In this document: piece after piece, positions 1,490 through 41,321 of the stretch
Layout of the letters: each line of letters begins with the position of its first letter
How positions within the stretch are numbered: position 1 is the first letter of the stretch
Assembly (NCBI GenBank): GCA_020060215.1
Contig: JAGVAP010000094.1
Location: 1 to 59,155 of the forward strand
Direction of reading: 5' to 3'
Length of the DNA: 59,155 nucleotides
From: Deltaproteobacteria bacterium
GTDB taxonomy: Bacteria; Desulfobacterota; DSM-4660; Desulfatiglandales; HGW-15
The notes under the pieces: model-generated
Seen by the model: only the letters and a program-made list of their open reading frames with translations
The model's database searches: none
What the model was told of the DNA's origin: nothing
Made by a program: the position numbers and the translations under genes

Positions 1490-1491
1490 AG

Positions 1492-10630: not shown

Positions 10631-10655
10631 AGGAGTTCCATACAGGTGGTGTGAT

Positions 10656-12608: not shown

Positions 12609-12659
12609 CGTCGTGGGGGTCTTACAACCGAAAACCGCTCATCCAAAAAGGAGGCAAAC

Positions 12660-13688: not shown

Positions 13689-13722
13689 CCCCGGGTTGAA
13701 GCGCGGCTTCGAACCCTCCAAC

Positions 13723-13754: not shown

Positions 13755-13812
13755 CTGTCGATTCCATGTCCACAAATTCAAGGGAGAGCTCCAAGACGGG
13801 GTTCATGAGACC

Positions 13813-14328: not shown

Positions 14329-14408
14329 GGGCGGAGCCGCAGGGATATCCCCCGAGGACTTGGCGGCGAGCGCTCCGGTCTTCGCGGCCGTTTCAGCAAA
14401 GGGCATTT

Positions 14409-20043: not shown

Positions 20044-20060
20044 ATCTCGTTATATGAGAT
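20044..20060 (+). promoter_or_regulatory. Candidate IclR operator palindrome overlapping the start codon
   Basis: ATCTC (20044-20048) and GAGAT (20056-20060) form an inverted repeat around GTTATAT, overlapping the ATG at 20054. It lies just downstream of the promoter, so binding of the IclR product could repress its own gene. Confidence 0.4.
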
Positions 20061-20965: not shown

Positions 20966-23920
20966 ATGGCACTTGAAAGAACGCAGTTTGCCGTCATCCT
21001 GATGGGTCTGGACAAGCTGATGAACTTTACGGCCAGGAGGAGTCCTTCCTTCCGGGAGCGCTTGAAGGGAAAGGATCTGGTCGCCCAGATCAAGCTCCAG
21101 GACAACTCCCAGGGAAGGACCTTCTTCTTCAGCAAGGGCAGGGTCCGGTCCAGGGGCGGCATCCATCCCGCCCCCCAGATCACCATCACCTACAGCTCTC
21201 CGGAGCTGGCGGTCCGTCTCATGAGGCCGAACCGGAGCCAGCTGGAGCAGATCAACGCCATGAAGAACTTCCAGATCGGGCTCGAGGGGCCGGACGAGCT
21301 GACTTCATGGTTCATGGAGACCCTCAGCCTGATGCTCTCCGCAGGCCTGCGTTACGGCACGGACATGGGGAAGGGGGTCAGGAGGTACACCAGCAATACC
21401 AACGGCGGGCCCGTGTTCGTCTACGTGAAGAACGGGAAGATCATCCGCGTGACGCCGATCGATTTCGACGAGGACGATGCGGCGCCGTGGACCATCGAGG
21501 CCAGGGGCAGGAGGTTCACCCCGCCTCGAAAGGCGACGGTGTCCCCTTATACCTTCGGGTGGAAGTCCATGATCTACTCGAAGGATCGGCTCCTCTATCC
21601 CATGAAACGCGTGGACTTCGACCCGGAGGGGCGGAGAAACTGCGGGAACCGGGGGATTTCCGGGTACGAGCGGATCTCCTGGGACCAGGCCCTCGACATG
21701 GTGGCGAACGAGATCAAACGGGTGAAGCGGGAGTATGGACCCGGCGCCATCATGAACGGGAGCGGATCCCACCACACGTGGGGCACCCTGGGATACTGGC
21801 TCAGCGCCAGGATCCGGTTCTTCAACTCCATCGGCTTCACCCCGGTGGTCCACAACCCCGACAGCTGGGAAGGCTGGTACTGGGGCGCCATGCACCACTG
21901 GGGCCAGAGCATGCGGCTGGGAGGTTCCGAAGCCTATGGGACCGTGGAGGACTGTTTGAAAAACTGCGAGATGGTGGTCTTCTGGTCCAGCGACCCCGAG
22001 GCGACCAGCGGGGTTTACGGGGCGTTCGAGGGGACGGTCCGGCGTCAGTGGCTCAAGGAACTGGGGATCCAGCTGGTCCACATCGATCCCTACTACAACC
22101 ATACGGCCGCGCTGCTCGGGGGCAAGTGGCTGGCCCCCAGGCCCGCCACGGGCAACGCCCTTGCCCTAGCCATCGCCTATGTATGGATCACCGAGGGTTT
22201 CTATGACCGGGAGTACGTGGAAAAGCGGACGACCGGTTTCGAGAGGTGGCGGGACTATATCCTGGGCAAGGAAGATGGAGTCGCAAAGACGCCGGAGTGG
22301 CAGGAGCAGGAGTCGGGCATCCCGGCCAAGGACGTGAGGGCGCTGGCCAGGGAATGGGGGAGCAGGAAGACCTATCTGGCTGCGGGAGGGATCACCGGGT
22401 TCGGGAGCGCGTGCCGCTGCGCCACCGGCAGCGAGTGGGCGAGGTCCATGGTCTGCCTCATGGGTATGCAGGGGCTGGGGAAGCCCGGTGTGAACATGGG
22501 GGGCATGCAGCAGGGGGCGCCGGTCGATCACCGGTTCTTCTTTCCCGGATACGCCGAAGGCGGCCTCTCGGGGGATCTCCAGGGCACGGCCCTGGCCGTG
22601 AACATGTACCAGCGGATGCCCCAGCTGGCCACCGTCAACACGGTCATGCAGCGGGTGCCGAGGCTCAGGATCCCGGAGGCGATCCTGGAGGGGCGCACCG
22701 AGGGGTATCCTACGGATCCCAAGACGATCGAAGGGCAGTTCCTGAAGTTCGACTATCCTGCGCCCGGCCATGCGCCGGTCAAACTCTACTACAAGTACGG
22801 CGGCTCCCACTTCGGCACCATGTGCGACACGAACCGCTACGCCAGGGCCTACCGGTCCGAGAACCTGGAGTGCGTGGTCAACCAGTCCATCTGGTTCGAA
22901 GGGGAGGCGAAGTTCGCGGATATCCTGCTGCCTGCGTGCACGAGCTTCGAGCGCTGGGACATCGGTGAGTTCGCGAACTGCGGCGGGTACATCCAGCACA
23001 GCTTCAATCAGTGCAACCACCGGATCGCCGTGCTGCAGCACAAATGCATCGAGCCCCTCGGGGAGTCGCGGTCGGACTTTCAGATCTTTGCGGACCTCTC
23101 GAAGAGGCTTGGCCTCTACGCCCTCTTCTCGGAGGGCGTTACGGAGCTGGACTGGTGCAAGCGGCTCTTCGAGGCCACGGATCTGCCCAACCACGTCTCC
23201 TGGAGGTCGTTCCTCCGGAAGGGCTACTTCGTCATCCCGAACCCGCCCGAGTCGATGAGAGCGCCTGTTTCGTTCCGGTGGTTTGCCGAAGGAAGATCCA
23301 AGGATACCCCCGAGCTGGCCCCGCTCCCCGCGGACTATACGGAAACGTTCGGGAGCGGCCTGCAGACCCAGTCCGGAAAGCTGGAGTTCGAGTGCGCCAG
23401 TCTGAAGCGCTTCGCCCCGGACGATCCGGAGCGGCCGGTGATCACCAAGTACATCCCCGCCTGGGAGGGGCACCACACCCGGGAGTTGATGCAGAAATAC
23501 CCCCTCCAGCTCATCTCGCCCCATCCCCGGTTCAGTTTTCACACCATGGGGGACGGGAAGGACAGCATCGTCAACGACGTGAAGGATCACCGGGTCTTGA
23601 TCGGTGGATACTACTACTGGATCGTCAGGATCCACGCAGCGGACGCGGCGGCCAGGGACATCCGGGAAGGGGACCTGGTGAGGGTCTTCAACGACCGGGG
23701 CGCTGTGATCTGCGCCGCGCAGGTGACGCAAAGGGTGCGGCCGGGGACCGTCCACTCCTATGAGTCCTCCGCGGTCTACGACCCGCTGGGGGAGCCGGGC
23801 GGTTCCCCCGATCGCGGCGGGTGCATCAACCAGCTCACTCCGAGCAGGACGATGATCGCGAAGTCTCACAGCCACGCGGCCAATTCCTGCCTCGTGCAGA
23901 TCGAGCGGTGGAGGGGTTAG
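20966..23920 (+). CDS. Transhydroxylase-type molybdopterin large subunit with extra N-terminal SCP2-like domain
   Basis: Residues from about 140 to 984 closely follow the large subunit of Pelobacter acidigallici pyrogallol-phloroglucinol transhydroxylase (about 875 residues), as I recall that sequence. Shared blocks include [51 protein letters not shown] and DRGGCIN near the C-terminus. No N-terminal Cys cluster motif is present, as in that family. The residues known there as His144, Tyr152, Asp174 and the Mo ligand Ser175 correspond to His269, Tyr277, Asp299 and Ser300 at one constant offset of 125. The first ~130 residues are extra; their pattern ([16 protein letters not shown], then a GLEGPDEL turn) resembles an SCP2 lipid-binding fold, which is my inference. 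The small subunit follows. The substrate is probably a hydroxylated aromatic. Confidence 0.9.
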
Positions 23921-24080
23921 AGGAGAGTGTCCAGGGTTCGGCGTTCAGGTTTCCGGATTGCCGAAATCTTGTGACGTCATTTCGACCGAAGGGGTCCGGG
24001 CTAACCGGAGCGAGTCAGATTTCTCGGTCGCTTCGCTCCTTCGAAAGGGCGCCCATCTTTGAGGGTGCTTGTCATTTGCC

Positions 24081-24105
24081 TGAACACCGAACGCTGAACA
24101 CCGAA
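24081..24105 (+). repeat. Short direct repeat TGAACACCGAA
   Basis: TGAACACCGAA occurs at 24081-24091 and again at 24095-24105. It sits in the 203-bp gap before the small-subunit gene, another short-word tract like those at 8264-8341. Confidence 0.5.
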
Positions 24106-24123
24106 AACGAATGGAGCATTCCC

Positions 24124-24972
24124 ATGACCCGATGGCATATGATCATCGATGTGGAAAAATGCGAGGACTGCAACAACTGCTTCCTCAGCTGCAAGGATGA
24201 GCACGTGGAGAACGACTGGCCCGGCTACGCCCTGGCACAGCCGCGCCACGGCCACCGGTGGATGAACATCATGCGCAGGGAGCGGGGGCAGTTCCCGCTC
24301 ATCGATGTGGCGTACCGCCCGACCCCGTGCATGCACTGCGATTCCGCCCCCTGCATCCGCGCCGCAAAGGACGGGGCCGTGTACAAGCGGGAGGACGGGA
24401 TCGTGATCATCGATCCGGTGAAGGCCGCAGGGCAAAGGGACATCGTGAAGACCTGCCCCTACGGGGCCGTCTGGTGGAATGAGGAGAGGAAGGTCGCACA
24501 GAAATGCACGTTCTGCGCCCACCTCCTGGACGAAGGATGGAAGGCGCCGAGGTGCGTCCAGGCATGCCCCACGGGCGCCCTAAAGGTGGTGGCGTGCGAC
24601 GAGCGGGAGATGGAAGGGCTCGCCCGCAGGGAAGGGCTGGCGGTCCTCCATCCCGAACTCAGAACCAAGCCGCGGGTCTACTACAGGAACCTCCACCGGT
24701 ATGAACGCTGTTTCGTGGCAGGCAGTGTGGCCGTGGAGAGGCAGGGATTGAAGGATTGTGTGAAGGGCGCCTCCGTCTCCCTCCGCGGGGCTGAGGGCAG
24801 GATCGGGGAAACGGTCTCCGATCCGTTCGGCGATTTCAAGCTGGACGGGCTGGAAGAGAACAGCGGCCGGTACTTCCTGGAGATCAGCCATCCGGAGTTC
24901 GGTCGCAAGGAGATCGAGGTGGAGGTGACCGCCAGCGTCAACGTGGGTACCGTCTACCTCACGTCGATTTGA
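24124..24972 (+). CDS. Transhydroxylase-type iron-sulfur small subunit with C-terminal beta-barrel domain
   Basis: This 282-residue protein has ferredoxin-like Cys groups: CEDCNNCFLSC near residue 14, CMHCDSAPC near 66, a TCPYG segment, CTFC near 128, and CVQACP near 145. A C-terminal all-beta domain (about residues 195-282) follows, with VKGASVSLRG and DPFGDFKLDGL. The P. acidigallici transhydroxylase small subunit (about 275 residues) has this layout, including the NYRPTPCMHC-like block and the KPRVYYKNL-like linker, which here reads TKPRVYYRNLHRYE. The ATG at 24124 has GGAG upstream. It would form a heterodimer with the product of 20966-23920. Confidence 0.92.
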   Translation: MTRWHMIIDVEKCEDCNNCFLSCKDEHVENDWPGYALAQPRHGHRWMNIMRRERGQFPLIDVAYRPTPCMHCDSAPCIRAAKDGAVYKREDGIVIIDPVKAAGQRDIVKTCPYGAVWWNEERKVAQKCTFCAHLLDEGWKAPRCVQACPTGALKVVACDEREMEGLARREGLAVLHPELRTKPRVYYRNLHRYERCFVAGSVAVERQGLKDCVKGASVSLRGAEGRIGETVSDPFGDFKLDGLEENSGRYFLEISHPEFGRKEIEVEVTASVNVGTVYLTSI

Positions 24973-25002: not shown

Positions 25003-27165
25003 TTACCTCTGATCGCCTTCATCCCGCACCTTCTCCACCTGGCACAAGAGGGACTTGAACCCCGGATAGGCCGACAGGGGATCCAGGTAGTCGGGCGGTA
25101 CGAGCAGGTTGGCATCCGCCTCGGGCCAGGCATGGTAGAAGTTGACGACCCCCGGACCGACGACCTCGGTCAGATGGGCCCGGACCCTGAGCGAGCCCCG
25201 CGGCGTGGAAAGGGAGATCCAGTCCCCGTCCGAGATGGACCGCGAAGCACCGTCCGCCGGGTTGATGTCGGCGCTCGGGTCTTTCCGCAAACCCCTGGTC
25301 CAGCCGAGCCTGAACGTCCTCGAGTGCACATACATGGGCAGCCGCGCACCCGTGGTCAGGATCAGGGGGAATCTCTCCGCCACCTCGGGCGTCGATCGGG
25401 GGCTCAACTTCGGCTCCCGGTAGCGAGGAAGGGGGTCGTGGCCGGCCTCCTTCAGGATGGTGGAGGTGAATTCCATCTTCCCGGAAGGCGTGGGAAAGCC
25501 CGTCTTCTCGTACTTCCTGAAAGGCGGCATCCTGAACCCCTTCAGGTGCAGCCCGGCCGGGTGCTCCTTCAACTTCGCCACCGTGAGGCCGGAGGGCTTC
25601 AGGATCCAGTCCACGGAATGCTCGTACCCCTTTTGCATGAGGCCGTCGTCCGGCAGCATCCTGCGGGCCAGTTCAAAGATGATCTCGGCGTCCGATCGCG
25701 ACTGATAAAGGGGCTCGATGACCGGCTGCGACCACATAACGTAGTTCTGGGCCCAGAACCGCAGCTCGCTCCGCTCGAAGGTGGTGCAGGCGGGCAGCAC
25801 CACATCCGCCATCCTGCAGGTCTCGGTCATGAAGAGGTCCACGTTCACGACAAAGTCCAGTTTCCTGAGACTATCGAGCATGAAATCCGAGCCGGGCCAC
25901 ATGCGGTATCTCATGCCGAAGGCCAGCATGGCCCGGATCGGATAGGGTTTTCCGCTGCGGATCTGGAAAGGGAGGTGGACGGCCTGCGCCTCGGGCACGA
26001 GCCTGCACCAGACAGGGTAGAGCTCCTCCCCGACCCGCGGGGGCATGTCCTTCCATGCCCGGACCTGCTTGTACTGCTCCTCCCGGAGGGTGGCCGCGGT
26101 CGGGATGTTCAGCCAGGTCGGCGGCACCACGTAGTTCCCGCCCGGCCGGTCGAAGTTCCCGGTAAGACCGATCAGTGCCGTGAGGGCCCTGTGATTCTGG
26201 ACGCCGTTGGTATGGTGGACGGTGGGGCTGGCGCTCGTCATCAGGGCGGCCGGCCGGGTGGTGGCATAGAGCCTTGCGGCCTCCACCATCAACCCGGCCG
26301 GGACCCCCGTGATCTCCTCGGTCGCCGAGGGGGTGAACTCGCCTGCGTACCGCTGGAACTCCTCAAAACCGAGGGTCCATCGGTCCACGAACTCACGGTC
26401 GTAGATCCCTTCCCGGATCATCACGTTGGCCATGCCCATGGCCAGGGCGCCCGAGGTGCCGGGCCGGATTCGAAGATGGACCGCGGCATGGCGGGTCATG
26501 GGCGTGAGGAGGGGCCCCACCTCGATGATCTTCAGCCCCTGGTCGACGGCATCCATGAGCCTTCGCGTGACGGCGGTGTTCGAATAGAAAGGGTTCTGGC
26601 TCCACACCAGCAGACAACGGGCGTTCCGCAGGTCCGGGGCCCCGAAACAACCGTAATTGAGCTTGGCCGCCATGGCGGTCGCCTGGTGGCAGGTGCTGGA
26701 CTCGGTGCAGTAGTTGGGGGAACCGAAGCTGTGGGCCAGACGCTTGAGGAAGGGGCGGAACCACTTCGAGTATCCGGCATAGAAGACCACGGATTCCGGC
26801 CCTGTCTCCGCCTTGACGGCGAGGAGCCTCCGGGAGATCGTGTCGAGGGCCTCTTCCCATGAAACCGGCGCGAAATCGCCCGATCCCCTCTCCCCCTTCC
26901 GTACGAGAGGTGTCCGGATCCGGTCCTTGTGGTAGATGTACTGCCTGCTCGCAGATCCTTTCGAACAGAGCGCCCCCTGGTTGTGGGGATGGCTCTCGCT
27001 CCCCTCCACCCGGACCACCACGCCATCCTTCACATAGGCATCGATCCCGCAATGCGTGGGGGCATTGCAGATGGAGCAAAACGTCTTGTGGACTCGTATG
27101 CCGGTTCCCTCACCGGGGATCTTCCCGGTTGCCGGACCGTGCGGTTTCACACCCTTGTTCATCAT
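25003..27165 (-). CDS. Third Mo/W-bisPGD oxidoreductase (DMSO reductase superfamily)
   Basis: This roughly 720-residue protein carries an N-terminal [4Fe-4S] motif (CSICNAPTHC followed by LCSKG, residues about 27-65). The molybdopterin domains include PVSWEEALDTISRRL, NFDRPGGNYV and a C-terminal barrel with ISDGDWISLSTPRGSLRVRA. The Cys in SSTCHQAT is a candidate Mo ligand. No Tat signal is apparent. The start at 27165 (ATGATG, GAGG upstream) is preferred because the longer in-frame version to 27654 runs through the divergent promoter region. No ferredoxin or membrane subunit is adjacent, so electrons must go to a partner encoded elsewhere. It is convergent with the transhydroxylase-like operon, 30 bp away. 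The substrate is unknown. Confidence 0.9.
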   Translation of the reverse strand: MMNKGVKPHGPATGKIPGEGTGIRVHKTFCSICNAPTHCGIDAYVKDGVVVRVEGSESHPHNQGALCSKGSASRQYIYHKDRIRTPLVRKGERGSGDFAPVSWEEALDTISRRLLAVKAETGPESVVFYAGYSKWFRPFLKRLAHSFGSPNYCTESSTCHQATAMAAKLNYGCFGAPDLRNARCLLVWSQNPFYSNTAVTRRLMDAVDQGLKIIEVGPLLTPMTRHAAVHLRIRPGTSGALAMGMANVMIREGIYDREFVDRWTLGFEEFQRYAGEFTPSATEEITGVPAGLMVEAARLYATTRPAALMTSASPTVHHTNGVQNHRALTALIGLTGNFDRPGGNYVVPPTWLNIPTAATLREEQYKQVRAWKDMPPRVGEELYPVWCRLVPEAQAVHLPFQIRSGKPYPIRAMLAFGMRYRMWPGSDFMLDSLRKLDFVVNVDLFMTETCRMADVVLPACTTFERSELRFWAQNYVMWSQPVIEPLYQSRSDAEIIFELARRMLPDDGLMQKGYEHSVDWILKPSGLTVAKLKEHPAGLHLKGFRMPPFRKYEKTGFPTPSGKMEFTSTILKEAGHDPLPRYREPKLSPRSTPEVAERFPLILTTGARLPMYVHSRTFRLGWTRGLRKDPSADINPADGASRSISDGDWISLSTPRGSLRVRAHLTEVVGPGVVNFYHAWPEADANLLVPPDYLDPLSAYPGFKSLLCQVEKVRDEGDQR

Positions 27166-27595
27166 CCATCCTCGTCCCCGGGGTTGCAGCGGCGGAACCC
27201 CCACCCCGCATGAAGTCTCCTGCCCGATCATTCTGGCCGCCTCACGCCGTGCAAGCGCCGGCGCTGCGGGGCGGCGGCAAGCGGGCCTGCCGACCACTGG
27301 ATGGAGCCCCGCAGGACTCACGGGGAGAACCATCTTAAGCCATTTGGTCCGAGAAAGCGAGCCGCTTTTCGCCGGAAAAGGTTCTCCTTCGCATTCCCAA
27401 GGGGGCTGGTCCCGCATATCTGAGCTTGTCAAGGTAGCGTGTTGTGTGTATGAATATCGATTGATCGGTGGAATGGGGCTTTTGCAGGTGCGGAGGGTTT
27501 TCAGCAGCCTCGGTTTCAGGTTTCTCAGGAAAAGGCCGATGATTTCTATTGGATCCTGTTCAATGGCGGAGGTTTCCTGAAGGAGAGCGCGCCCG
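27166..27595. other. 430-bp divergent intergenic region
   Basis: This stretch separates the third molybdoenzyme (- strand) from the PhcB-like gene (+ strand). I see no convincing gene in it. A possible promoter for the PhcB-like operon is TTGTCA (27426-27431) with TATGAA (27449-27454), 17 bp apart, in a locally AT-rich patch. Confidence 0.5.
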
Positions 27596-29017
27596 ATGTC
27601 CAGACCTGACCCCAGAATGAGAGCCCTTACCGAAAGCCTCGTGATGTTTCGCAATTCTCAGGGAGTGGAGGCACGGGGCACCCTGATCCACCTCACCCGA
27701 AACATCGCGGTCTTCGAAGTCTACAACCCCTACTCCATTGTCCAGTTGAGCGAGGTTTTGCAGGATCTTCGGATCCTGAGAGGCGAGCGCACCATTTACA
27801 ACGGCCGGGCGGTCGTGAGCAACCTCCTGCCTACAGGATTGATGGTGATCTGTTCGGCCACCCTGGTCGATCCATGGTCCGAGCTGGCCGACCTCGTTCC
27901 CGGTCACGGCCTCCGGGAAGAGTTGGATCGATTCGTGCAGGAATGGTCGACGACCCAGACCATCGCCTCTCCCTTCCGCCTTGCCGTCGGTGATCTGAAG
28001 TCCTTCCTCGGGGAAGTGAGCCGGCTTCTCCAGCAGGTGGATGTCGCCCTGCAGACCACCCCGACGGAATCCGCGCCCCAACCAGGGGAGTTGCTGGAGA
28101 CCATCGTTCCACCCATCGCTCCCAAGTTTCAAGAGCTCCTCGACGCCTTCGAGTACGAGGCGGGCCGAATCGACCCGGGGGTCGCGGCCCCCCACAAGAT
28201 GTTTGCGCGGAACGAGCTCCATCCCTTTTTGTTGTGCTCCCCGTTCATCCACCGGATTTATGCGAAGCCCCTGGGATATGCGGGAGACTACATCATGGTC
28301 AAGATGATCATGGATGTTGCGTTCGAGGGCGCGAATACCTATGCCAAGCTCGTGAATCACTTCTATCTGGATCAGCCGCCTGCGCGCGCACACCGCAACC
28401 GTATCGCGATCCTCGTCAATGCCCTTCACGGGGAAGCGGTCCGTGTCTCCGGAGCGGAAAGGAAGTTGAGGGTCTTGAATATCGGCTGCGGCCCGGCCGT
28501 GGAGGTCGAGAGGTTCATCCGGAAGGATGCGTTGTCGGAAAGGTGTGAGTTCCACCTCCTCGATTTCAACCGGGAGACCCTGGAGTATGCGAGGGAAACG
28601 GTTGAAAACGTGAGCAGAGAAGTCGGAAGGAGTCCGAGCGTCGTTTTTATCCACCAGTCCATCCACGATCTCCTCAGAGAGGCGGCGACTCGCCATCACC
28701 AACCGAACCATCCGTCCTTTGACCTGATCTACTGCGCCGGGCTGTTCGATTACCTTGGGGACCGGGTCTGCAGGCGGTTGATGCAGTTGTTTTACAACCG
28801 CGTGGTTCCAGGGGGGTTGCTGATCGCTACCAATGTCCACCCCCGTAATCCCACGCGATACTTCATGGAACACATTGCCGAATGGCATCTGGTGTATCGT
28901 GACGAAGCCGAGATGAAGTCCCTCTCGCCCCGAACGGACTGCCGGACATACGTGGATCCGACAGGCGTGAACGTGTTTCTGGAAATCCGAAAGGAAAAGG
29001 AAGAAGGTGGGCAGTGA
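27596..29017 (+). CDS. PhcB-like SAM-dependent methyltransferase (3-hydroxy fatty acid methyl ester synthase family)
   Basis: This 473-residue protein has three parts. An N-terminal PilZ-like beta region (residues about 15-100) comes first, followed by a helical middle. The class I methyltransferase domain (about 270-470) has the SAM loop LNIGCGPAVEVERF and the acidic strand end LLDFN. PhcB of Ralstonia makes 3-hydroxypalmitate or 3-hydroxymyristate methyl ester as a quorum signal and is about the same length. The two following genes encode kinase and receiver proteins in the Phc order, which strengthens the call. AAGGAG lies 10 bp upstream of the ATG. The next gene overlaps it by 11 bp. That the product makes a fatty acid methyl ester is inferred from family and context. 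Confidence 0.8.
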   Translation: MSRPDPRMRALTESLVMFRNSQGVEARGTLIHLTRNIAVFEVYNPYSIVQLSEVLQDLRILRGERTIYNGRAVVSNLLPTGLMVICSATLVDPWSELADLVPGHGLREELDRFVQEWSTTQTIASPFRLAVGDLKSFLGEVSRLLQQVDVALQTTPTESAPQPGELLETIVPPIAPKFQELLDAFEYEAGRIDPGVAAPHKMFARNELHPFLLCSPFIHRIYAKPLGYAGDYIMVKMIMDVAFEGANTYAKLVNHFYLDQPPARAHRNRIAILVNALHGEAVRVSGAERKLRVLNIGCGPAVEVERFIRKDALSERCEFHLLDFNRETLEYARETVENVSREVGRSPSVVFIHQSIHDLLREAATRHHQPNHPSFDLIYCAGLFDYLGDRVCRRLMQLFYNRVVPGGLLIATNVHPRNPTRYFMEHIAEWHLVYRDEAEMKSLSPRTDCRTYVDPTGVNVFLEIRKEKEEGGQ

Positions 29018-31607
29018 TACGGTAGCGACTGTTCTCGCCGCTGAGTACGCTCGATATGATCGGAACCTGCGCTTTACCCGGTTTCGGATCGTCGGCATCC
29101 TCTCCCTCGTGTTGATGCTCGCAGGGGTGAGTCTCGATTTCTTCGTCTATCCCGATCTCCTTCGTGCCCTTTTCTGGATCCGGGTGCTCTGCGACGTGGC
29201 TACGGCCGTTCTCCTGGCGTTCTCCTTCTCGTCCCTCGGGCAGCGGATGATCACCCCTCTGGGCCATGCCGTGATGCTGGTACCCGTGGTCTTCATGACC
29301 ATGATGATCTATGTCTCCGAAGGGGCCATGTCTCCTTATTATGCCGGGCTGAACCTGGTTTTTCTCGGGGTGGGCGTCCTCATGCCCTGGAGCGTAAAAG
29401 AGACGCTGGGGTTCTGCCTGGTCACCATCCTGATCTACTCGGCCGCGTGCCTCCTCCACCGCCAGACCGATATCTACTGGCACACGCTTTTCAACAACCT
29501 CTATTTCCTGACACTGACGGCCGTTGTCTGCATCACCGCCAGCTACTACATCTCCCGCAGAAGGTTTGAGGAATTCCGGCTCCGCCATGAACTGGGCCGC
29601 CGCAACGAGGAGCTGGCCCGATCCAATGAGCAACTGGAGGAGCTGGATCGGCTCAAATCCGAGTTCTTCGCCAATGTCAGCCATGAGCTGCGCACACCGA
29701 TCACCCTGATCATCTCCCCCCTCCAGGATGCCATCCGCAACGCCGACCTCCCATCCGCCACCCGGGGTATCCTGAGGATCGCCCTGGACCATTCCATGCG
29801 ACTGTTGAAGCTGATGAACGATCTGCTCGATCTCATCCGCGTCGGAAAGGGAAAGGCCGAGTACAAGATGCAGCCGATCGATCTCTCCTCCTTTGTGCCG
29901 GGCATCGTGGATTCACTGGGTTATCTTGCCCGGTTGAAGAGGCAGCAGATCTCCTGCCGGGGGCAAAACGGACCCCTCATGGTGCAGGGGGACCCGGACA
30001 AGCTCGAGAAGGTGCTGCTCAACCTCCTCACCAACTCCATGAAGTTCACCCCGACGGGCGGCACCATCACGGCCCGTCTGCACCGGGACGGATCCAAGGC
30101 GGTCGTCGAGGTCGAAGACACCGGCATCGGTATCCCTGCGAAGGATCTCCCCTTCATCTTCGACCGGTTTCGCCAGGTGGACGGGTCGTCGACCAGGAGG
30201 TTTCAGGGGCTCGGCATCGGACTGGCCCTGGCCAGGGCGATCGTCGAGGAACACAAAGGGGTGATGCGCGCCCAGAGCGAACAGGGGAAAGGCTCCATCC
30301 TCAGGGTCGAGCTCCCGCTGTGTGAGGGAAAGGCGCCGCAAGGGGATGCAAAGAGCGGGGAGGAGAATCTCGATCCTTTGTCGGAGATCTACGCGGCGGC
30401 CGACCGGAAGCTCTCCATCCGGATCGAAGAGGGGCAGGGGGAGATGGCCGCAGTCGGGACCGGGGAGGTCTCCATCCTGGTGGTCGAGGACGAGCCGGAC
30501 ATGCGGCGATTCCTGGTCTCTCTCTTTTCCGACGAGTTCAAGGTGCTGCAGGCGGTAGACGGACTCTCCGGGCTCGCCACGGCCCGAAAGCATCAACCCG
30601 ATCTCGCGCTCCTTGACCTGATGCTTCCCGGCATGGACGGACTTGAACTGTGCAAGGCCATCAAGATGGATCCTGCAACCTCGAACATGAAGGTGGTGCT
30701 CCTTACGGCCCGTGTGGACGAGGAGTCCAAGATCTCGGCTTTGGAGCGGGGGGCGGACGATTTCATCACCAAGCCGTTCAGCACCACGGAACTGAGGGTG
30801 AGGCTCTCCAATCTGCTTCGCGCAGCTCAGCTGGAGGAGAAGGTCAGGAAGAGGAACGTGGAGCTGGAAGACACCCTCAGACGACTGAAGGAAACCGAGG
30901 CCCAGCTCGTTCAGAGTGAAAAGATGAACGCGCTTGGGAATCTCTCCGCAGGGCTGATTCACGAGATCAACAACCCCCTGAACTTCACGCTCACCGCGAT
31001 TCAGGTGGCGGTGAAGGAGGCGCAGAGCGGCTCTCCGGATCTGAAGGAGACCCTCGAGGATATCGGTCAGGGGATGACCCGCATACGGGACATCATTTCC
31101 GATCTCCGGGCGTTCGTCCATCCGACCGGGGAGATCCGCAGGCAGCCTTTCCGCATCTCCGAGGCCATAGAGACCGCCCTCCACCTGGTCTCCCATGAAC
31201 TGAGGGACCTGCAGGTGGCCAAACCGGCGGCAAGCGAGCGGGTGAGCGGCTCGAAAAACCAGGTCATCCAGGTCTTTGTCAACCTCTTGGTCAATTCGTC
31301 CCAGGCCTTGCGATCGCTGCCGCCGGATGAAACCCGTTCGCCTCAGATCCGGATCTCCACGGACAGGCAGGACGGACGTCTTCTTGTAAAGGTCTGGGAC
31401 AACGGCATCGGCATCGACCCGAAGCATCTTACGAGGGTGTGTGATCCGTTTTTCACCACCCGCGACGTCGGAAAGGGAATGGGCCTGGGTTTGAGCATAT
31501 GCCACACGATCATCGGGAACCACCAGGGGAAGATCACCATTGAAAGCAGGCAAGGCGAATGGACCGAGGTCTCATTCGACCTTCCCCTTGCCGACCAGGA
31601 GGATTAG
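29007..31607 (+). CDS. Hybrid sensor kinase: PhcS-like membrane kinase fused to PhcR-like receiver-kinase
   Basis: This 866-residue protein starts at GTG 29007, inside the end of the methyltransferase gene. An N-terminal set of about six membrane helices (residues 27-182) leads through a coiled coil to the first kinase core: His226 in FFANVSHELRTP, N-box LLTNSMKF near 340, DTGIGIP near 371, GLGIGL near 401. A receiver domain (about 488-605) has Asp537 and Lys589. A second kinase core follows (His652 in IHEINNPLN, DNGIGID, GKGMGLGLS). In Ralstonia the first half (PhcS) and the receiver-kinase half (PhcR) are separate proteins. Here they are one chain, which would make phosphotransfer internal. 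The likely input is the methyl ester signal at the membrane. Confidence 0.85.
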   Translation: MGSDTVATVLAAEYARYDRNLRFTRFRIVGILSLVLMLAGVSLDFFVYPDLLRALFWIRVLCDVATAVLLAFSFSSLGQRMITPLGHAVMLVPVVFMTMMIYVSEGAMSPYYAGLNLVFLGVGVLMPWSVKETLGFCLVTILIYSAACLLHRQTDIYWHTLFNNLYFLTLTAVVCITASYYISRRRFEEFRLRHELGRRNEELARSNEQLEELDRLKSEFFANVSHELRTPITLIISPLQDAIRNADLPSATRGILRIALDHSMRLLKLMNDLLDLIRVGKGKAEYKMQPIDLSSFVPGIVDSLGYLARLKRQQISCRGQNGPLMVQGDPDKLEKVLLNLLTNSMKFTPTGGTITARLHRDGSKAVVEVEDTGIGIPAKDLPFIFDRFRQVDGSSTRRFQGLGIGLALARAIVEEHKGVMRAQSEQGKGSILRVELPLCEGKAPQGDAKSGEENLDPLSEIYAAADRKLSIRIEEGQGEMAAVGTGEVSILVVEDEPDMRRFLVSLFSDEFKVLQAVDGLSGLATARKHQPDLALLDLMLPGMDGLELCKAIKMDPATSNMKVVLLTARVDEESKISALERGADDFITKPFSTTELRVRLSNLLRAAQLEEKVRKRNVELEDTLRRLKETEAQLVQSEKMNALGNLSAGLIHEINNPLNFTLTAIQVAVKEAQSGSPDLKETLEDIGQGMTRIRDIISDLRAFVHPTGEIRRQPFRISEAIETALHLVSHELRDLQVAKPAASERVSGSKNQVIQVFVNLLVNSSQALRSLPPDETRSPQIRISTDRQDGRLLVKVWDNGIGIDPKHLTRVCDPFFTTRDVGKGMGLGLSICHTIIGNHQGKITIESRQGEWTEVSFDLPLADQED

Positions 31608-31609
31608 CC

Positions 31610-32851
31610 GTGTACGATTACAGGAAGTTTCACATTCTGTACGTGGATGACGAAGAGCAGTCGCTCAAGTACTTCAAGAAGGCGTTCCAGGAGGAGTTCT
31701 CCATCCTCACCTCGCCGGATGTCCGGGAAGCCGAAGAGATCCTGGAGCGCGAGAGTAACCGGATCGGGATCCTGATCACCGATCAGCGCATGCCCGGCCG
31801 TACAGGAGTCGACCTCCTCGGCCACGTGCGCAGGATGCAGCCGAGGATCGTCCGCATGCTCACGACGGCCTACTCCGATCTGGACAGCGCAATCGAGGCG
31901 GTGAACTCCGGGGCGATCTTCAAGTACATCATGAAACCCTGGAACCTTCAGGACCTGCGCGGATGCCTCCTCCGCGGCATGGAGTTCTTCCTGGTGCAAA
32001 TGGAAAGGGACGCCCTCCTCAGGGAAAAGATGAGCATCCTTCAGCGGTTGATCGTCATGGATCGGGTGCGCAGCCTGGCCATCATGGCCGCCGGGCTTTC
32101 CCACCAGATCCGCAATCCCCTGACGGCCCTCAAGACCTTTCTCGACCTCACCCCCAGGAAATTGAGAGAAGAGTTGAATGAAAACGTCCGGCTCAAGAGC
32201 CCGGACTTCTGGGAAGACTTCTGGTCCATTGCAGAGCAGGAGAGCGCCCGGATCCTCAAGATCATCGATCAGGTCGGAAGGATGGTCGTAGTGCCCACGA
32301 CCCGTTTCTCGGGCCCTTACCCGATCCGGGACCTGGTCCGAGGGGCGAGGGCTTACGCCGAGAGACAGGCATCCGGCTCCGTCGAAGTGGACCTGCTCGA
32401 TACACTCCCCCCGGTGAAGGCGGACGCACAGATGGTGGAGCAGCTCTTCCAGATCCTGGTGAAGTGGATGATCGCGATGACCCCAGGCCGGGAGATCCTG
32501 ATCGAGGCCAAAGAAACGGCTCGCATCTGGGGTGTGGAAGGGGTGAGAATACGGATCCTGAGCAAGGGGCCGGTGTGGACGGAGATCCGCGTCTCCTCCC
32601 TTTTCACCGCCTTCTCGATCGTGGACGAGGATCTGCAGGATCCCGGAATGGACCTGCTGCCCGCCTTTTTTATCATCCATCACCACGGCGGAGAGATCCT
32701 GATTCACAAGTCCCCCCCGGAGGGGCCGGGCCTGGAGGTCATTCTGCCGATCGATCCGGAAAGCGTGAACCTGCCGTTGAAGGAGGACGATCTCCTCCAG
32801 AAGATCATGGCCTATTCGGAGATATGGGAGGACATCCAGGCGAACTTCTAG
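31610..32851 (+). CDS. PhcQ-like response regulator with degenerate kinase-like C-terminal half
   Basis: This 413-residue protein starts at GTG 31610, with AGGAGG 8-13 bp upstream and only 2 bp after the kinase stop. The receiver domain (residues about 5-125) has acidic Asp13/Asp14, phospho-acceptor Asp58 and Lys109. A dimerisation-type helix with His165 in GLSHQIRNPLTAL follows. The rest resembles an ATPase fold but lacks a clear N-box and the glycine-rich G1/G2 boxes, so it probably does not bind ATP. PhcQ of Ralstonia is a receiver protein in the same operon position. No DNA-binding domain is present, so output would be by protein contact. Confidence 0.8.
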   Translation: MYDYRKFHILYVDDEEQSLKYFKKAFQEEFSILTSPDVREAEEILERESNRIGILITDQRMPGRTGVDLLGHVRRMQPRIVRMLTTAYSDLDSAIEAVNSGAIFKYIMKPWNLQDLRGCLLRGMEFFLVQMERDALLREKMSILQRLIVMDRVRSLAIMAAGLSHQIRNPLTALKTFLDLTPRKLREELNENVRLKSPDFWEDFWSIAEQESARILKIIDQVGRMVVVPTTRFSGPYPIRDLVRGARAYAERQASGSVEVDLLDTLPPVKADAQMVEQLFQILVKWMIAMTPGREILIEAKETARIWGVEGVRIRILSKGPVWTEIRVSSLFTAFSIVDEDLQDPGMDLLPAFFIIHHHGGEILIHKSPPEGPGLEVILPIDPESVNLPLKEDDLLQKIMAYSEIWEDIQANF

Positions 32852-33816
32852 ACCCCTCGGATATAGTCCGTCACCACCCAGATGAGGGACGCGGCCACGA
32901 GCGAAATCAGGGTGACCAGGACCGCCTTGTAAACACGATCGCCGGTCCTCGAAACCGCGATGGCGGGCACCACACGGGCGGCGGTCAGCGCAAGACTCAG
33001 GTGGCAGACCGCGTCAAGCAGATTTCGATTCAGATGGTGATTTTTTGACAGCAGCAGGGCGATGCGCCGGTCGCCGATCACGATTCCGGAAGACCTGCTC
33101 ATCAGCCGGCTTTCCGCCTGTTCGTTCAGCAGATCGAGCTCCCGCTTCAGTTCCTCGAAGCGCTTGAGGACCTCCCCGTCCGAAAGAAGATCCATGGCCC
33201 TCTCCTTATCCGCCGCCCATGCATGTACATCGGAAAGAGCGAGTTCGAGCTTCCTGGAAAGGATCGGCCTGTATCCGTGGGGCATCCGGCTTTCCAAGGA
33301 GAAACCCGCGCCCATCTTGAGCATGAGACCGAGCCCCAGGGGGCGATCGTGAAAAATGTTGACCCTGAGACCGACCTCCCGGCTGTCCTCGTCGGTCATG
33401 GGGGAAAAGGCCAGCACGAGACCGTTGTGCTTCACCCTGAAATACGGACCGCACCCAAAGAGCGTTACCGCACCGAAACCCCCGGGGAAACCCCATTTCC
33501 TCTCCAGAACCCATCCCATTTCACGGCTGATGGAGGTCAACCACTCGACCGGTCGTCTGCTTCTGAGGAATGAAAGGAAAAGGGCGGCCGCGATGAAGAG
33601 GCCGATGCACACGGCGATCCAGGAGAAACGGGCATCGATCAAGCGGATCAGGGACTCCATCAGGCCGGGTCGGGGCCCTGCCAGCAGGAAGTAGGCGACG
33701 AGACCCAGAAAGAGCGCATCCGAGACGACGAGCACGGGCCAGAGCCACGGGAGCGGTTTTTTCCTGCTGCCGGCCCCCTGCCCGCCGGGAGCGGTTTTTT
33801 CCTCATGGGCAAACAT
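32848..33816 (-). CDS. Hypothetical membrane protein
   Basis: This 322-residue protein has two N-terminal helices (residues about 24-46 and 65-84) and a soluble middle with a charged helix containing LKRFEELKRELDLLNEQ. Two C-terminal hydrophobic segments follow, ending in AVLVTLISLVAASLIWVVTDYI. I do not recognise a family. ATG 33816 has GGAGGG 6 bp upstream; ATG 33822 abuts that site. Its stop codon overlaps the stop of the convergent PhcQ-like gene (shared bases 32848-32851). Confidence 0.7.
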   Translation of the reverse strand: MFAHEEKTAPGGQGAGSRKKPLPWLWPVLVVSDALFLGLVAYFLLAGPRPGLMESLIRLIDARFSWIAVCIGLFIAAALFLSFLRSRRPVEWLTSISREMGWVLERKWGFPGGFGAVTLFGCGPYFRVKHNGLVLAFSPMTDEDSREVGLRVNIFHDRPLGLGLMLKMGAGFSLESRMPHGYRPILSRKLELALSDVHAWAADKERAMDLLSDGEVLKRFEELKRELDLLNEQAESRLMSRSSGIVIGDRRIALLLSKNHHLNRNLLDAVCHLSLALTAARVVPAIAVSRTGDRVYKAVLVTLISLVAASLIWVVTDYIRGV

Positions 33817-34531: not shown

Positions 34532-36247
34532 TTGAAAAGGTTTCTTCCGCTCATCGCTGTCTTCTGCCTGTCGTCGCTTGCCGTCGCACAGGAGACCCCG
34601 CCTAGGGAAGAAGGTGGCTTCCGCAGCCCGCACCTGGTCGAACTCCTGCGCCTTGACCCGACGTTCAAGCTCGACATCCGGTACGCGACCGGAAACAACT
34701 TCCTCGGACAGCCTGTGTACGAAGAGGCAAGGGCGTTTCTGCAGGCCCCTGCAGCGGCGGCCCTCGTCCGCGTCCATCGCAGGCTGAAGGAGAAAGGGTA
34801 CGGCCTCGTCATCTTGGACGGGTATCGGCCGTGGTATGTGACCAAGTTGTTCTGGGACAGGTTTCCCCGGTTCAGGGAGTATCTCGCAGATCCGGCCCAG
34901 GGCTCCCGCCACAACCGCGGCTGCGCGGTGGACCTGACGCTCTACGACCTGAAGACGGGCGAGGAAGTGGCCATGCCGAGCCCCTTTGACGATTTCACGG
35001 AACGCGCCCACCCCGAGTACAAAGGCGGGAAGGCCGAAGAACGGGCGGCGCGCGATCTGCTCCGTTCCGCGATGGAGTCCGAAGGGTTTACGGTCTACAA
35101 AAACGAGTGGTGGCATTTCGACTATCAGAACTGGCGCCAGTATCCTATCCTCAACCTGAGGTTCTCCGAAATCCGGGAAGAGACCATGGCCACATTCGCA
35201 TCGGTGGAGGAAGGAGGGCAAATCCTCGGCTCCGTGGATGAATATATCGAGCGCATGAGCCCCCTCGACCGATCCATTCGGATGAAGACGGATCGGCCGG
35301 TCTCGAAGGAGGAGTTCACGGCGTTTCTCCGCTCCAATGTGCTGCCGTGGGAAGCGGGGGAAGAGGCCAAGATCGGAGCCGTCCTCGGGGAACTCCGGGA
35401 CGGGCTGGAAAAGGCGTCGGTTCCCGACCTCGGAACCATCACTTTGATCAAGACGACAGGGGAGGAAGAGGGCAACGGGGCCTACACGCGCGGCAGGTCG
35501 ATCGTTCTTCCGCAGGCCATGATTCGGCGTCCCGAGGGTTTCTTGAAGAGACTGCTCGCTCATGAGCTGTTCCACCTCCTCTCCCGCGACCACCCTGCTT
35601 TGCGCAACGCATTGTATGAAACGATCGGGTTTCGGTATTGCGGCGAGGTGGCGTTTCCGGAGGAACTCGTCCCGCGCAAGATCACCAATCCGGATGCGGT
35701 GAAAAACGAGCACTTCATTGTGGTAAGGGCGGAGGACCGACCGGTCCCGGTGGTCCCCATCGTCTATTCCACGGCGGCGAGATACGACCCCGGGAGCAGG
35801 AAGGGGCTGTTCGATTACATGGAGCTTTTCCTGATGGCCGTAGATCCGGGTTCCGCCGCCCCGTTAGGAACGAAGGGAGCCGGGGGACCGCTGCTCTTCC
35901 GTGTAGACCAGGTCTCGGGTTTCTTTGAGCAGGTGGGTCGGAATACGGACTACATCCTCCATCCGGAGGAGATCCTGGCGGAGAACTTCGCCCTGCTTGT
36001 GCTGGGGGAGCGAGACATCCCCTCCCCGGAGATCCCTGCCGGGATCGGGAAAACGCTTGCAGCCTTCGCTCCCGGCAGCAACCTGCTAGAGGATCTCCAC
36101 CTGCTCCAGCCTTCGCGGCCTTGTGGCCAGGGGTTTCCCGGTGCGGAGACCGTCTTCGAAGAGCTCTTGGCCGAGGAGCGCGGCGCCCAGGGCGCCCGTG
36201 ATGAGCGGCTCGGGTGGGATGGCGAGCCCGCAGCCGAGCTGCTCTGA
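34532..36247 (+). CDS. Secreted VanX-type D-Ala-D-Ala dipeptidase fused to HExxH metalloprotease-like domain
   Basis: This roughly 571-residue protein starts at TTG 34532 with GAGGA 7 bp upstream, giving a clean signal peptide (KRFLPLIAVFCLSSLAVA). The first domain (mature residues to about 200) is a VanX/DdpX dipeptidase, with the zinc site SRHNRGCAVD and the catalytic EWWHFDY motif. The second domain has HELFH near residue 348, a possible second zinc site. VanX enzymes are normally about 200 residues, so this is a two-enzyme fusion. It probably acts on cell-wall peptides in the periplasm. The last ~50 residues are antisense to the convergent activator gene (162-bp overlap) and look unconstrained. 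Confidence 0.8.
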   Translation: MKRFLPLIAVFCLSSLAVAQETPPREEGGFRSPHLVELLRLDPTFKLDIRYATGNNFLGQPVYEEARAFLQAPAAAALVRVHRRLKEKGYGLVILDGYRPWYVTKLFWDRFPRFREYLADPAQGSRHNRGCAVDLTLYDLKTGEEVAMPSPFDDFTERAHPEYKGGKAEERAARDLLRSAMESEGFTVYKNEWWHFDYQNWRQYPILNLRFSEIREETMATFASVEEGGQILGSVDEYIERMSPLDRSIRMKTDRPVSKEEFTAFLRSNVLPWEAGEEAKIGAVLGELRDGLEKASVPDLGTITLIKTTGEEEGNGAYTRGRSIVLPQAMIRRPEGFLKRLLAHELFHLLSRDHPALRNALYETIGFRYCGEVAFPEELVPRKITNPDAVKNEHFIVVRAEDRPVPVVPIVYSTAARYDPGSRKGLFDYMELFLMAVDPGSAAPLGTKGAGGPLLFRVDQVSGFFEQVGRNTDYILHPEEILAENFALLVLGERDIPSPEIPAGIGKTLAAFAPGSNLLEDLHLLQPSRPCGQGFPGAETVFEELLAEERGAQGARDERLGWDGEPAAELL

Positions 36248-36928
36248 GAGGGCGTGGACAAGCCCTGCGTTCTTGGCACCGCCCCCGGTAAGGACCACCT
36301 CCTTCTCCACCTTCAACCTGTTGGCCATCCTCGCCACCCGTTCGGCCAGGGACTTGTGGACGCCGGCCACGAGGTCCGGCACCGGAACGCCCTCGGCGAG
36401 CCTGGAGGCGACCTCCTGCTGGGCCCAGATGGTGCAGATGTTGCTGATCCGGGCGGGGTTCCTGCTCCTGAGGGAGACCTCGCCCACTTCCTCCAGTCTG
36501 AGGCCGAGGGTGTCCGCGATGACCTCGATGAACCGCCCGCTCCCGGCGGCGCACTTGTCGTTCATGATGAAATCGACGGGCTTTCCCGAGGGGCCGAGCT
36601 TGATGGCCTTGCTGTCCTGGCCGCCCACGTCGATAACGGTCCGAGCCTTCGGGATGAGGCGGGCGATCCCCCTTGCATGACAACTGATCTCCGTGACCTG
36701 CTTGTCCGCGAAGGGGACATTGATGCGGCCATACCCGGTGGAGACGACGGACGCAATGGATTCGAAGGGGACCGCGGCGAGCCGAAGGGTTTCTTCCATG
36801 ACCCTGCTGGCGAGCCTCCTCTGTTCCGCCCCGGTCGGCCCGATAACCGTGGCGACGATCGCTTCACCTTCAACGATCACCGCCTTCGTCATGGTGGAGC
36901 CGATATCGATTCCGGCGAAATAGGCCAT
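36086..36928 (-). CDS. BadF/BadG/HgdC-type ATP-dependent activator of dehydratase/reductase (copy 1)
   Basis: This 280-residue ATPase shows the ASKHA nucleotide-binding site GIDIGSTMTKAV at the N-terminus, DVGGQDSKAI near residue 98, and VLTGGGAKN near 215. Two Cys residues for a bridging [4Fe-4S] cluster of the homodimer lie in NDKCAAGSGRF and ISNICTIWAQQE. Such activators use ATP to push an electron into 2-hydroxyacyl-CoA dehydratases or benzoyl-CoA reductases. It lies downstream of two genes for exactly those subunits on the same strand. ATG 36928 was chosen because the conserved domain starts there. Its 3' end overlaps the convergent peptidase gene by 162 bp. Confidence 0.92.
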   Translation of the reverse strand: MAYFAGIDIGSTMTKAVIVEGEAIVATVIGPTGAEQRRLASRVMEETLRLAAVPFESIASVVSTGYGRINVPFADKQVTEISCHARGIARLIPKARTVIDVGGQDSKAIKLGPSGKPVDFIMNDKCAAGSGRFIEVIADTLGLRLEEVGEVSLRSRNPARISNICTIWAQQEVASRLAEGVPVPDLVAGVHKSLAERVARMANRLKVEKEVVLTGGGAKNAGLVHALSEQLGCGLAIPPEPLITGALGAALLGQELFEDGLRTGKPLATRPRRLEQVEIL

Positions 36929-37106
36929 AAGAAGAGTTTCAGACAGGGTAACCTGCCTGCGCCAAGGCTTCGGCAAGGCCAGGCAGGATCTACAGGATGA
37001 AAAGACAAAGGCGGGGGGTCAAAATGACGGAGTATGTTTCCCCTTTCATCAATCCGCCTCAGTTGCCAGCGGCCGGGCTGACCTCTCCCATGCAACGTCA
37101 TCCCCC

Positions 37107-37174
37107 GTAGGAGCAAGCTCCTGCTTGCGATTCATTCAACTCCGAAGAGATCGCAAGCAGGAGCTTGCTCCTAC
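37107..37174 (+). repeat. REP-like inverted repeat, perfect 24-bp arms
   Basis: GTAGGAGCAAGCTCCTGCTTGCGA at 37107-37130 is repeated in reverse complement at 37151-37174. Each arm is itself partly palindromic (GAGCAAGCTC). It lies in the gap between the activator and the reductase-type subunit gene. Relatives occur at 43644-43706, 46899-46970, 53382-53406 and 58254-58305. Confidence 0.85.
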
Positions 37175-37210
37175 AGAAGGAAAAACCGCGATTCAACGCC
37201 CTCTGCCTTC

Positions 37211-38608: not shown

Positions 38609-38633
38609 CGCCTTCCTCCCTCTCTCGGATCCG

Positions 38634-39791: not shown

Positions 39792-40003
39792 GGGCTCACT
39801 CCTTTGACGGCCGATCCGGATGGACGCGAAGCCCCCCGAAACCCGATCATGCCGCAGAATCATCCATTCCAGCTCAAAGCATATCTCGTTCGAGGGGAAG
39901 TGTCTACATCATAGCTGTTTCCCGATCCGGGATTTGCCGGGGTCACGACGAGTGGGATCGAGGTTTGCGCTACGGATTTCGAGGGGGGGAGGGCGGACAA
40001 CGC

Positions 40004-41209: not shown

Positions 41210-41321
41210 GAAATAGGCCTCCTTAGGACTCCCTTCGTTCTTGCTGTCGGCGTTGGAACGCTCTTTGCCGAGCTGATAAAATAGAACATCCGGAGCCATG
41301 CGTCAAATGGCAAGACTCGAG

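What the first reader, a model, noticed from the sequence alone, without database searches (positions are those of the whole stretch)
27596..32851. Phc-type fatty acid methyl ester quorum-sensing operon in a probable Desulfobacterota genome
Three overlapping or abutting genes encode, in order, a PhcB-like methyltransferase, PhcS/PhcR-like kinase parts and a PhcQ-like receiver, matching the Ralstonia phcBSRQ order. Phc signalling is described in Ralstonia/Cupriavidus; in a strict anaerobe with no nearby PhcA gene it would be a new setting with unknown output.
Basis: partly seen in the sequence, partly recalled or inferred. Interest (0 to 1): 0.82.

Follow-up and report, generated by a model that had tools for sequence, protein, structure and literature searches.

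The report
Widespread relative of Phc quorum sensing
A three-gene cassette in a probably anaerobic bacterium is a genuine relative of the Ralstonia/Cupriavidus cell-to-cell signalling genes, and comparison suggests that the well-studied version is a trimmed-down offshoot of a signalling cassette present in several bacterial phyla.

Summary
The operon is real. Gene 1 is a full-length PhcB homologue (45-47% identical to Cupriavidus gilardii PhcB). Gene 2 is one protein: the PhcS membrane part and PhcS kinase with an extra kinase-receiver module (HK1-REC) between them. It is not a PhcS/PhcR fusion, and no PhcR gene is present. Gene 3 is the PhcQ counterpart: a receiver plus a degenerate kinase fold. 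Genome searches rank PhcS first of 92 matches in C. gilardii and, in reverse, the hybrid kinase first of 129 in the nearest MAG. The layout is not peculiar to this organism: PhcB - hybrid PhcS - PhcQ stands in 58 of 63 assessable loci outside Burkholderiales (Planctomycetota, Verrucomicrobiota, Alpha- and Gammaproteobacteria, others), and the hybrid in 0 of 5 inside. Burkholderiales rows are nested among hybrid-bearing rows in two trees, so the known Phc system looks like a reduced derivative. In the nearest MAG's phylum, full-length PhcB was found in 1 of 395 genomes, that MAG itself. PhcB's N-terminal barrel may descend from a PilZ domain. Most likely function: making and sensing a fatty-acid (or other carboxylic-acid) methyl ester, output through PhcQ to an unknown partner. 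Homology is shown; signal and output are inferred.

The parts
27596..29017 (+). phcB-like gene, 473 aa; ribosome-binding-like AAGGAGAG at 27580
27635..27865 (+). N-terminal six-strand domain of PhcB (residues 14-90), possibly PilZ-derived, without the PilZ motifs
   Evidence: strands in the model; full-length profile alignment to PilZ-methyltransferases; Pfam PilZ over cut-off in three of those relatives; front part alone weak
28241..29005 (+). class I SAM-dependent methyltransferase domain of PhcB (about residues 216-470)
29007..31607 (+). hybrid PhcS gene, 866 aa (GTG start, overlaps gene 1 by 11 bases)
29007..29606 (+). membrane sensor part of gene 2 (residues 1-200), homologous to the PhcS membrane part
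   Evidence: 28% to C. gilardii PhcS (E 6e-21), 33% to P. graminis (E 3e-28); MASE8 below cut-off
29634..30326 (+). HK1 of gene 2, H226 in SHELRTP; absent from the 5 Burkholderiales PhcS examined
30474..30806 (+). receiver of gene 2, acceptor D537 in DLMLP; absent from the 5 Burkholderiales PhcS examined
30885..31598 (+). HK2 of gene 2 = PhcS kinase; H652 in LIHEINNP corresponds to the autophosphorylated PhcS histidine
   Evidence: (43% over 252 aa, E 8e-68); H230 from PMC11960443
31610..32851 (+). phcQ-like gene, 413 aa from GTG 31610
31634..31960 (+). receiver of the PhcQ-like protein; acceptor Asp = residue 75 counted from 31559, D in 88 of 88 aligned receiver proteins
32084..32275 (+). HisKA-like helices of PhcQ with His (residue 182 counted from 31559)
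32324..32758 (+). degenerate ATPase region of PhcQ: no N, G1 or G2 box by motif scan, no Pfam HATPase match
27166..27595 (.). approximate region between the divergent molybdoenzyme gene (start about 27165, by comparison with L004) and phcB; likely control region, no promoter consensus found

Best explanation
The operon is a signal-synthesis and sensing cassette homologous to PhcB-PhcS-PhcQ. PhcB uses SAM to methylate the carboxyl group of a fatty acid, most likely a 3-hydroxy acid, giving a diffusible methyl ester (inferred from PhcB). The membrane part of the hybrid PhcS binds the ester; HK2 autophosphorylates on H652 and passes phosphate to the aspartate of PhcQ. HK1 and the internal receiver form an added module that gates HK2 (inferred from architecture only). 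PhcQ is not an active kinase: its receiver plus degenerate kinase fold works as a phosphorylation-switched adaptor that binds an output protein, as Ralstonia PhcQ binds PhcA. The partner here is unknown. The Burkholderiales system is a derived branch that lost HK1-REC. Shown: homology, gene order, conserved phospho-sites, tree position. Inferred: substrate, ligand, phosphate flow, adaptor role.
For: PhcB: hits named '3-hydroxypalmitic acid methyl ester biosynthesis protein' by JGI, e.g. P0002 (79%), P0015 (57%), P0021 (55%); 47% to C. gilardii PhcB; 42 columns invariant over 80 sequences including it; in the tree 14 Burkholderiales rows are one clade (100/100) inside 25 Pseudomonadota rows (100/100), window with L004 (100/100) outside. 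PhcS: best kinase hits in both directions; HK2 is 43% to PhcS, 23% to the window's own HK1; in the HK2 tree Burkholderiales are one clade (100) among hybrid rows. PhcQ: receiver 46% to C. gilardii PhcQ; path 1.27-1.78 to 10 proteobacterial Q, 1.66-2.59 to 9 R. Operon in 58 of 63 loci; hybrid in 0 of 5 Burkholderiales. PhcQ binds and stabilises PhcA (PMC13320629, abstract and discussion read).
Against: No product, ligand or phosphotransfer was measured. Gene 3's receiver is as similar to PhcR's as to PhcQ's by identity (both 46%), and the tree distances to Q and R overlap slightly. The Pseudomonadota set of 25 was named after seeing an earlier tree; two other proteobacterial MAG rows, L026 and L070, lie elsewhere. 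In the HK2 tree Burkholderiales do not fall with the other Pseudomonadota; nearby forks are weak (19-56) and grouping them is not rejected (p-AU 0.106). No PhcA-like output was found. No Ralstonia sequence was compared by name; C. gilardii and P. graminis stood in.
Confidence: 0.7

Rival explanations
1. Same circuit, different signal: the methyltransferase esterifies another carboxylic acid, for example an aromatic or dicarboxylic acid, and the cassette reports metabolic state rather than cell number.
For: Benzoyl-CoA-reductase-type and pyrogallol-hydroxytransferase-like genes lie within 10 kb of the operon; substrate residues are unknown; divergent relatives carry other sensor domains in front.
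Against: Of nine neighbouring window genes tested, four have clear counterparts in L004's 19.4 kb (60-76% identity) but not the benzoyl-CoA-type ones, and none matches in L005's 12.9 kb, where the operon is kept. The methyltransferase is strongly conserved with Cupriavidus PhcB.
Confidence: 0.18
2. The methyltransferase modifies a protein (CheR-like adaptation of the kinase) and no diffusible signal is made.
For: Two of three divergent PilZ-methyltransferases match Pfam CheR over its cut-off (L151, L152).
Against: The window protein does not reach Pfam CheR at E 0.001, C. gilardii PhcB only below cut-off, and Ralstonia PhcB is reported to make the ester (PMC8578825, abstract and introduction read).
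Confidence: 0.07
3. A Ralstonia-type phcBSRQ operon recently transferred into this anaerobe, with PhcS and PhcR fused.
For: Order B-S-Q; rarity in the phylum, 1 of 395 genomes.
Against: Window PhcB lies outside the Burkholderiales clade and the set of 25 Pseudomonadota rows; the HK1-REC module is shared by Planctomycetota, Verrucomicrobiota and others and its receiver shows no match to PhcR's. Transfer from some other phylum is not excluded.
Confidence: 0.03

Closest known systems
PhcBSRQ of Ralstonia/Cupriavidus (3-OH PAME / 3-OH MAME quorum sensing)
   Same: Homologous PhcB along its length, PhcS membrane and kinase parts, PhcQ receiver; order B-S-Q; PhcS H230 corresponds to H652
   Different: Extra HK1-REC inside PhcS, no PhcR, PhcQ keeps a longer degenerate kinase part with its histidine, no PhcA found, other phylum, output unknown
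LvrA/LvrB of Leptospira
   Same: Hybrid kinase (NCBIfam LvrA, 304 bits) and receiver-controlled kinase; LvrB is the best Foldseek match of gene 3 (E 5e-15, TM 0.29)
   Different: Score far under the LvrA cut-off of 1200; LvrB is an active kinase (abstract of PMC13269768), gene 3 lacks the ATP-binding boxes; whether a methyltransferase lies by lvrAB was not looked at
PilZ- and cNMP-domain methyltransferases of the same phylum (L150-L155)
   Same: Homologous methyltransferase; in 4 of 6 loci a kinase similar to the PhcS kinase lies next to it or within 2.3 kb
   Different: Recognisable PilZ or cyclic-nucleotide domain in front instead of the PhcB N-terminus; no separate PhcQ-like protein in those 6 loci at E 1e-4

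Membership tests
Phc quorum-sensing system | PhcB methyltransferase homologous over full length | tested here: met
Phc quorum-sensing system | PhcS: membrane sensor part plus kinase with conserved phospho-histidine | tested here: met
   with an inserted HK1-REC module
Phc quorum-sensing system | PhcR (separate REC-HK protein) | tested here: not met
   no such gene in the operon; gene 3 lies nearer Q. phcR deletion left phenotypes largely unchanged in strain OE1-1 (PMC8578825 abstract)
Phc quorum-sensing system | PhcQ: receiver protein without DNA-binding domain | tested here: met
Phc quorum-sensing system | LysR regulator PhcA as output | tested here: inconclusive
   no whole genome for the window; 2 LysR in the nearest MAG, both nearest the selenium-metabolism model but below its cut-off; no PhcA reference sequence at hand
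Phc quorum-sensing system | production of a 3-hydroxy fatty acid methyl ester | not testable with these tools
   needs chemistry
Phc quorum-sensing system | density-dependent signalling | not testable with these tools
   needs cultures
LvrA (NCBIfam NF047465) | score over curated cut-off 1200 | tested here: not met
   304.4 bits
PilZ domain (PF07238) | Pfam match of the PhcB N-terminus | tested here: not met
   no match in the window protein (E up to 0.001) or C. gilardii PhcB (E up to 0.05); homology only through intermediates
PilZ domain (PF07238) | PilZ fold of the N-terminal part | tested here: inconclusive
   six strands in the model; fold search hardly tested this part

The most novel reading that the evidence does not exclude
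Phc signalling is an old, multi-phylum system whose original form is PhcB - hybrid PhcS - PhcQ, and PhcB evolved from methyltransferases with a regulatory second-messenger domain: relatives in the same phylum carry PilZ domains with a c-di-GMP-type motif, or cyclic-nucleotide domains, in front of the same enzyme. Ester-signal synthesis was then, and in those relatives still is, gated by intracellular second messengers; PhcB kept the barrel but lost the motif.
Probability: 0.45. Interest if true: 0.75.

Novelty: new variant of a known kind. Interest (0 to 1): 0.62.

Why it matters
A 2023 orthologue survey of 6,937 representative Proteobacteria genomes describes the phc cluster as of more restricted distribution, in Betaproteobacteria (PMC10653808, passages read). 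The same core cassette is present in contigs labelled Planctomycetota, Verrucomicrobiota, Alpha- and Gammaproteobacteria and a deltaproteobacterial lineage, among them records that bear strain names, so probably cultured: Salinisphaera hydrothermalis C41B8, Brevifollis gellanilyticus NBRC 108608, Coraliomargarita sp. SDUM461004. That makes ester signalling testable outside plant pathogens, gives an evolutionary reading of PhcQ (a decayed receiver-kinase turned adaptor), and asks what takes PhcA's place.

Tried and rejected
PhcS-PhcR fusion: rejected. The inserted receiver gave no match to PhcR's receiver and 28% to C. gilardii PhcQ's.

Phage or plasmid origin: viral contigs gave 37 pattern matches, none a relative; plasmids gave 97 records, 1 covering at least 80% of the query, Paraburkholderia graminis.

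PDB by sequence: nothing for PhcB at E 0.001. Fold search with the whole PhcB model hardly tests anything outside residues 216-468; no PilZ structure is in the lists shown, and the N-terminal part was not predicted and searched alone. N-termini compared alone: local probability 23%, E 9e-4; global 0.5%, E 0.06. The full-length profile alignment (run with a setting that lengthens alignments) covers the N-terminus, but the methyltransferase part anchors it; in a plain hmmsearch 6 of 8 PilZ-type sequences align from model position 6-12, L091 from 45 and L095 from 90.

Trees were discarded because several rows were translated on the wrong strand; one search is the corrected one (19 near-duplicate loci of 82 left out, 16 genome-search loci added). 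In one search L038 and L044 count as 'short' only because their PhcS is split over two frames. Searches left out 22 of 82 loci, and 8 more had no HK2 match over 100 bits. One search left out 18 loci, 70 of 88 sequences kept.

Literature: (ester or phcB with Verrucomicrobia or Planctomycetes) found 0 papers; some searches listed 2, 6 and 7 papers and I saw none there that reports phc genes in those phyla, from titles and abstract starts, with passages read in PMC10653808. One search (PhcB with PilZ) listed 4; in two I read the PilZ passages, which do not concern PhcB, the other two are off topic by title. Only an open-access library is held.

Full report
What is there. The window holds three same-strand genes: 27596-29017 (473 aa), 29007-31607 (866 aa) and 31610-32851 (413 aa from a GTG behind a CAGGAGG-like site; the ORF finder's longer start is 31559). 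No promoter consensus was found upstream. The operon lies between a divergent molybdopterin oxidoreductase gene and a convergent gene without Pfam match. Locus L004, from the metagenome-assembled genome Deltaproteobacteria bacterium HGW-Deltaproteobacteria-15, aligns over 27593-33747 at 73% DNA identity; the proteins are 70% (B), 72% (S) and 78% (Q) identical, and four of nine further neighbours have clear counterparts (60-76%; a fifth, the first molybdoenzyme, matches only at 25%). So the window is probably from a relative of that organism. 'Desulfobacterota' is inferred; NCBI lists HGW-15 as unclassified Deltaproteobacteria.

Gene 1. Pfam sees only a generic methyltransferase. The database search scored 7,997 candidates; 4,966 pass E 0.001 and the best 120 are listed, several bearing JGI's name '3-hydroxypalmitic acid methyl ester biosynthesis protein'. 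C. gilardii PhcB is 47% identical. In a tree of 79 sequences rooted on seven divergent methyltransferases, 14 Burkholderiales sequences are one clade (100/100) within a set of 25 Pseudomonadota sequences (100/100), and window plus L004 are sisters (100/100) outside it. Two further rows labelled proteobacterial, L026 and L070, lie among Opitutaceae and FCPU426 rows, so MAG labels or transfers blur the picture.

Gene 2. Cut into parts and compared with C. gilardii and P. graminis proteins: residues 1-200 match the PhcS membrane part (28 and 33%), residues 613-866 the PhcS kinase (43 and 44%); HK1 (201-450) matches the PhcS kinase only at kinase-background level (27%, against 23% for HK1 with HK2), and the inserted receiver has no PhcR match. 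With the whole protein the C. gilardii genome gave 92 matches: the PhcS kinase is first (189 bits); second is another kinase matching HK1-REC (139); the next match reaching into HK2 has 94. With C. gilardii PhcS the HGW-15 genome gave 129 matches: the hybrid gene is first (190 bits) and second (154, its front half); the best other kinase has 112. PhcS histidine 230, needed in R. pseudosolanacearum (PMC11960443, passages read), corresponds to the histidine in LLHEVNNP of C. gilardii (residue 231) and LIHEINNP here (H652); the correspondence with Ralstonia numbering is inferred.

Gene 3. The receiver matches PhcQ and PhcR of C. gilardii equally by identity (46%), but in a tree of 70 receivers the window is nearer ten proteobacterial Q (1.27-1.78) than nine R (1.66-2.59). 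The acceptor aspartate is kept in 88 of 88 aligned receiver proteins. Behind it lies a kinase-like fold: Pfam finds HisKA but no HATPase. A motif scan finds none of the three ATP-binding boxes in the window, L004 or L005 proteins; among the other Q proteins single boxes appear in L057, L063, L065, L076 and L079. The eight R-type proteins with a kinase part have at least one box, and five additional receiver-kinases (L017, L020, L024, L038, L040) two or three. The histidine is present here, but at that column only 49 of 88 sequences have it; C. gilardii PhcQ does not. The model (mean pLDDT 82) is most like receiver-controlled kinase LvrB. I read PhcQ as a decayed receiver-kinase that became an adaptor; binding of PhcQ to PhcA is reported (PMC13320629).

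How widespread. Of 77 non-Burkholderiales loci (window included), 63 have at least 4.3 kb behind PhcB; 60 of 63 have the complete hybrid PhcS in one frame and 58 of 63 also PhcQ behind it. Exceptions: L038 and L044 (PhcS split over two frames, Q present), L039 (no Q found), L051 (no Q downstream; two Q/R-like genes upstream) and L073 (neither). None of 5 Burkholderiales loci has the hybrid. Gammaproteobacteria such as L016, L036 and L047 have hybrid PhcS plus an R-like and a Q-like gene. Genome samples at E up to 1e-30: phylum of HGW-15, 30 of 395, only the centre genome full length, the other 29 at 109-225 bits (model A1); Burkholderiaceae 32 of 150 (A1); phylum of L065 (Verrucomicrobiota) 13 of 240, 10 above 580 bits (A4); phylum of L008 (Planctomycetota) 15 of 246, 6 above 560 bits (A4). 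Each sample includes its centre genome, chosen because it carries the gene.

Direction of change. With the divergent methyltransferases (PhcB tree) or HK1 domains (HK2 tree) as outgroup, the Burkholderiales rows (14 and 5) form one clade among rows with hybrid PhcS, so loss of HK1-REC is simpler than many gains. The HK2 tree does not place Burkholderiales with the other Pseudomonadota; its nearby forks are weak (19-56), and holding them together is not rejected (p-AU 0.106).

A second layer. The weaker relatives in the same phylum have other front domains: of six examined, three have a PilZ domain over Pfam's cut-off (one by 0.1 bit), three a cyclic-nucleotide domain. PilZ-type front parts read RRDxRY or similar, then D(Y/F)SRTG, resembling the c-di-GMP motif of PilZ (motif recalled). 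Profile alignment of PhcB with the PilZ-type family covers window residues 5-472 (E 1.9e-54), and the PhcB model has six strands at 14-90 (10-residue block means 73-95). PhcB reads LIHLTRNIA where the others have the motif. The front-only comparison is weak, so this is a hypothesis. A Ralstonia PhcB mutation outside the methyltransferase domain, R22C, is among mutations described under the heading 'decrease responsiveness' (PMC6989110, passages read), which would fit a regulatory front part; I could not map R22 on a Ralstonia sequence.

Mechanism proposed. Ester synthesis by PhcB, sensing by the PhcS membrane part, phosphate to PhcQ, partner binding; HK1-REC adds a second input or a gate. Order of events, ligand and output are inferred. 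The nearest MAG has two LysR proteins over the Pfam cut-off, both nearest a selenium-metabolism LysR model and below its cut-off, so a PhcA equivalent seems unlikely there, though the MAG may be incomplete.

Verdict. Real, homologous to Phc, not a full member by gene content (no PhcR; PhcA not found), and more interesting for what it says about the origin of Phc than for its single host.

Noticed in passing
window 20966-24972 and 25003-27654: Two molybdopterin oxidoreductases and a 4Fe-4S protein; the first resembles pyrogallol hydroxytransferase large subunit. The second is divergent from phcB in both the window and L004.
   Followed up: partly
window 36086-41299: BadF/BcrD-type ATPase, two 2-hydroxyglutaryl-CoA dehydratase/benzoyl-CoA reductase-type subunits and a thiolase: an anaerobic CoA-thioester cluster.
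   Followed up: no
window 185-15704: Three TRAP DctM transporter genes, DctP and NMT1-like binding proteins, a molybdoenzyme with iron-sulfur and delta subunits, an amidohydrolase.
   Followed up: no
window 20054-20827: IclR-family regulator, the only DNA-binding regulator among the 33 window proteins scanned.
   Followed up: no
L150-L155: PhcB-like methyltransferases fused to PilZ (L150-L152) or cyclic-nucleotide domains (L153-L155); a kinase stands next to it in L153-L155 and 2.2 kb away in L152, with a receiver in the three scanned (L152-L154).
   Followed up: partly
L019, L021, L025, L033, L046, L049: Verrucomicrobial loci with two further receiver proteins behind the operon, possible extra outputs.
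   Followed up: no
L001 10727-11131: Paraburkholderia graminis plasmid operon has a receiver-only protein where PhcR would stand, possibly a PhcR without kinase part.
   Followed up: no
L038, L044: Hybrid PhcS split over two reading frames; sequencing error or real split not decided.
   Followed up: no
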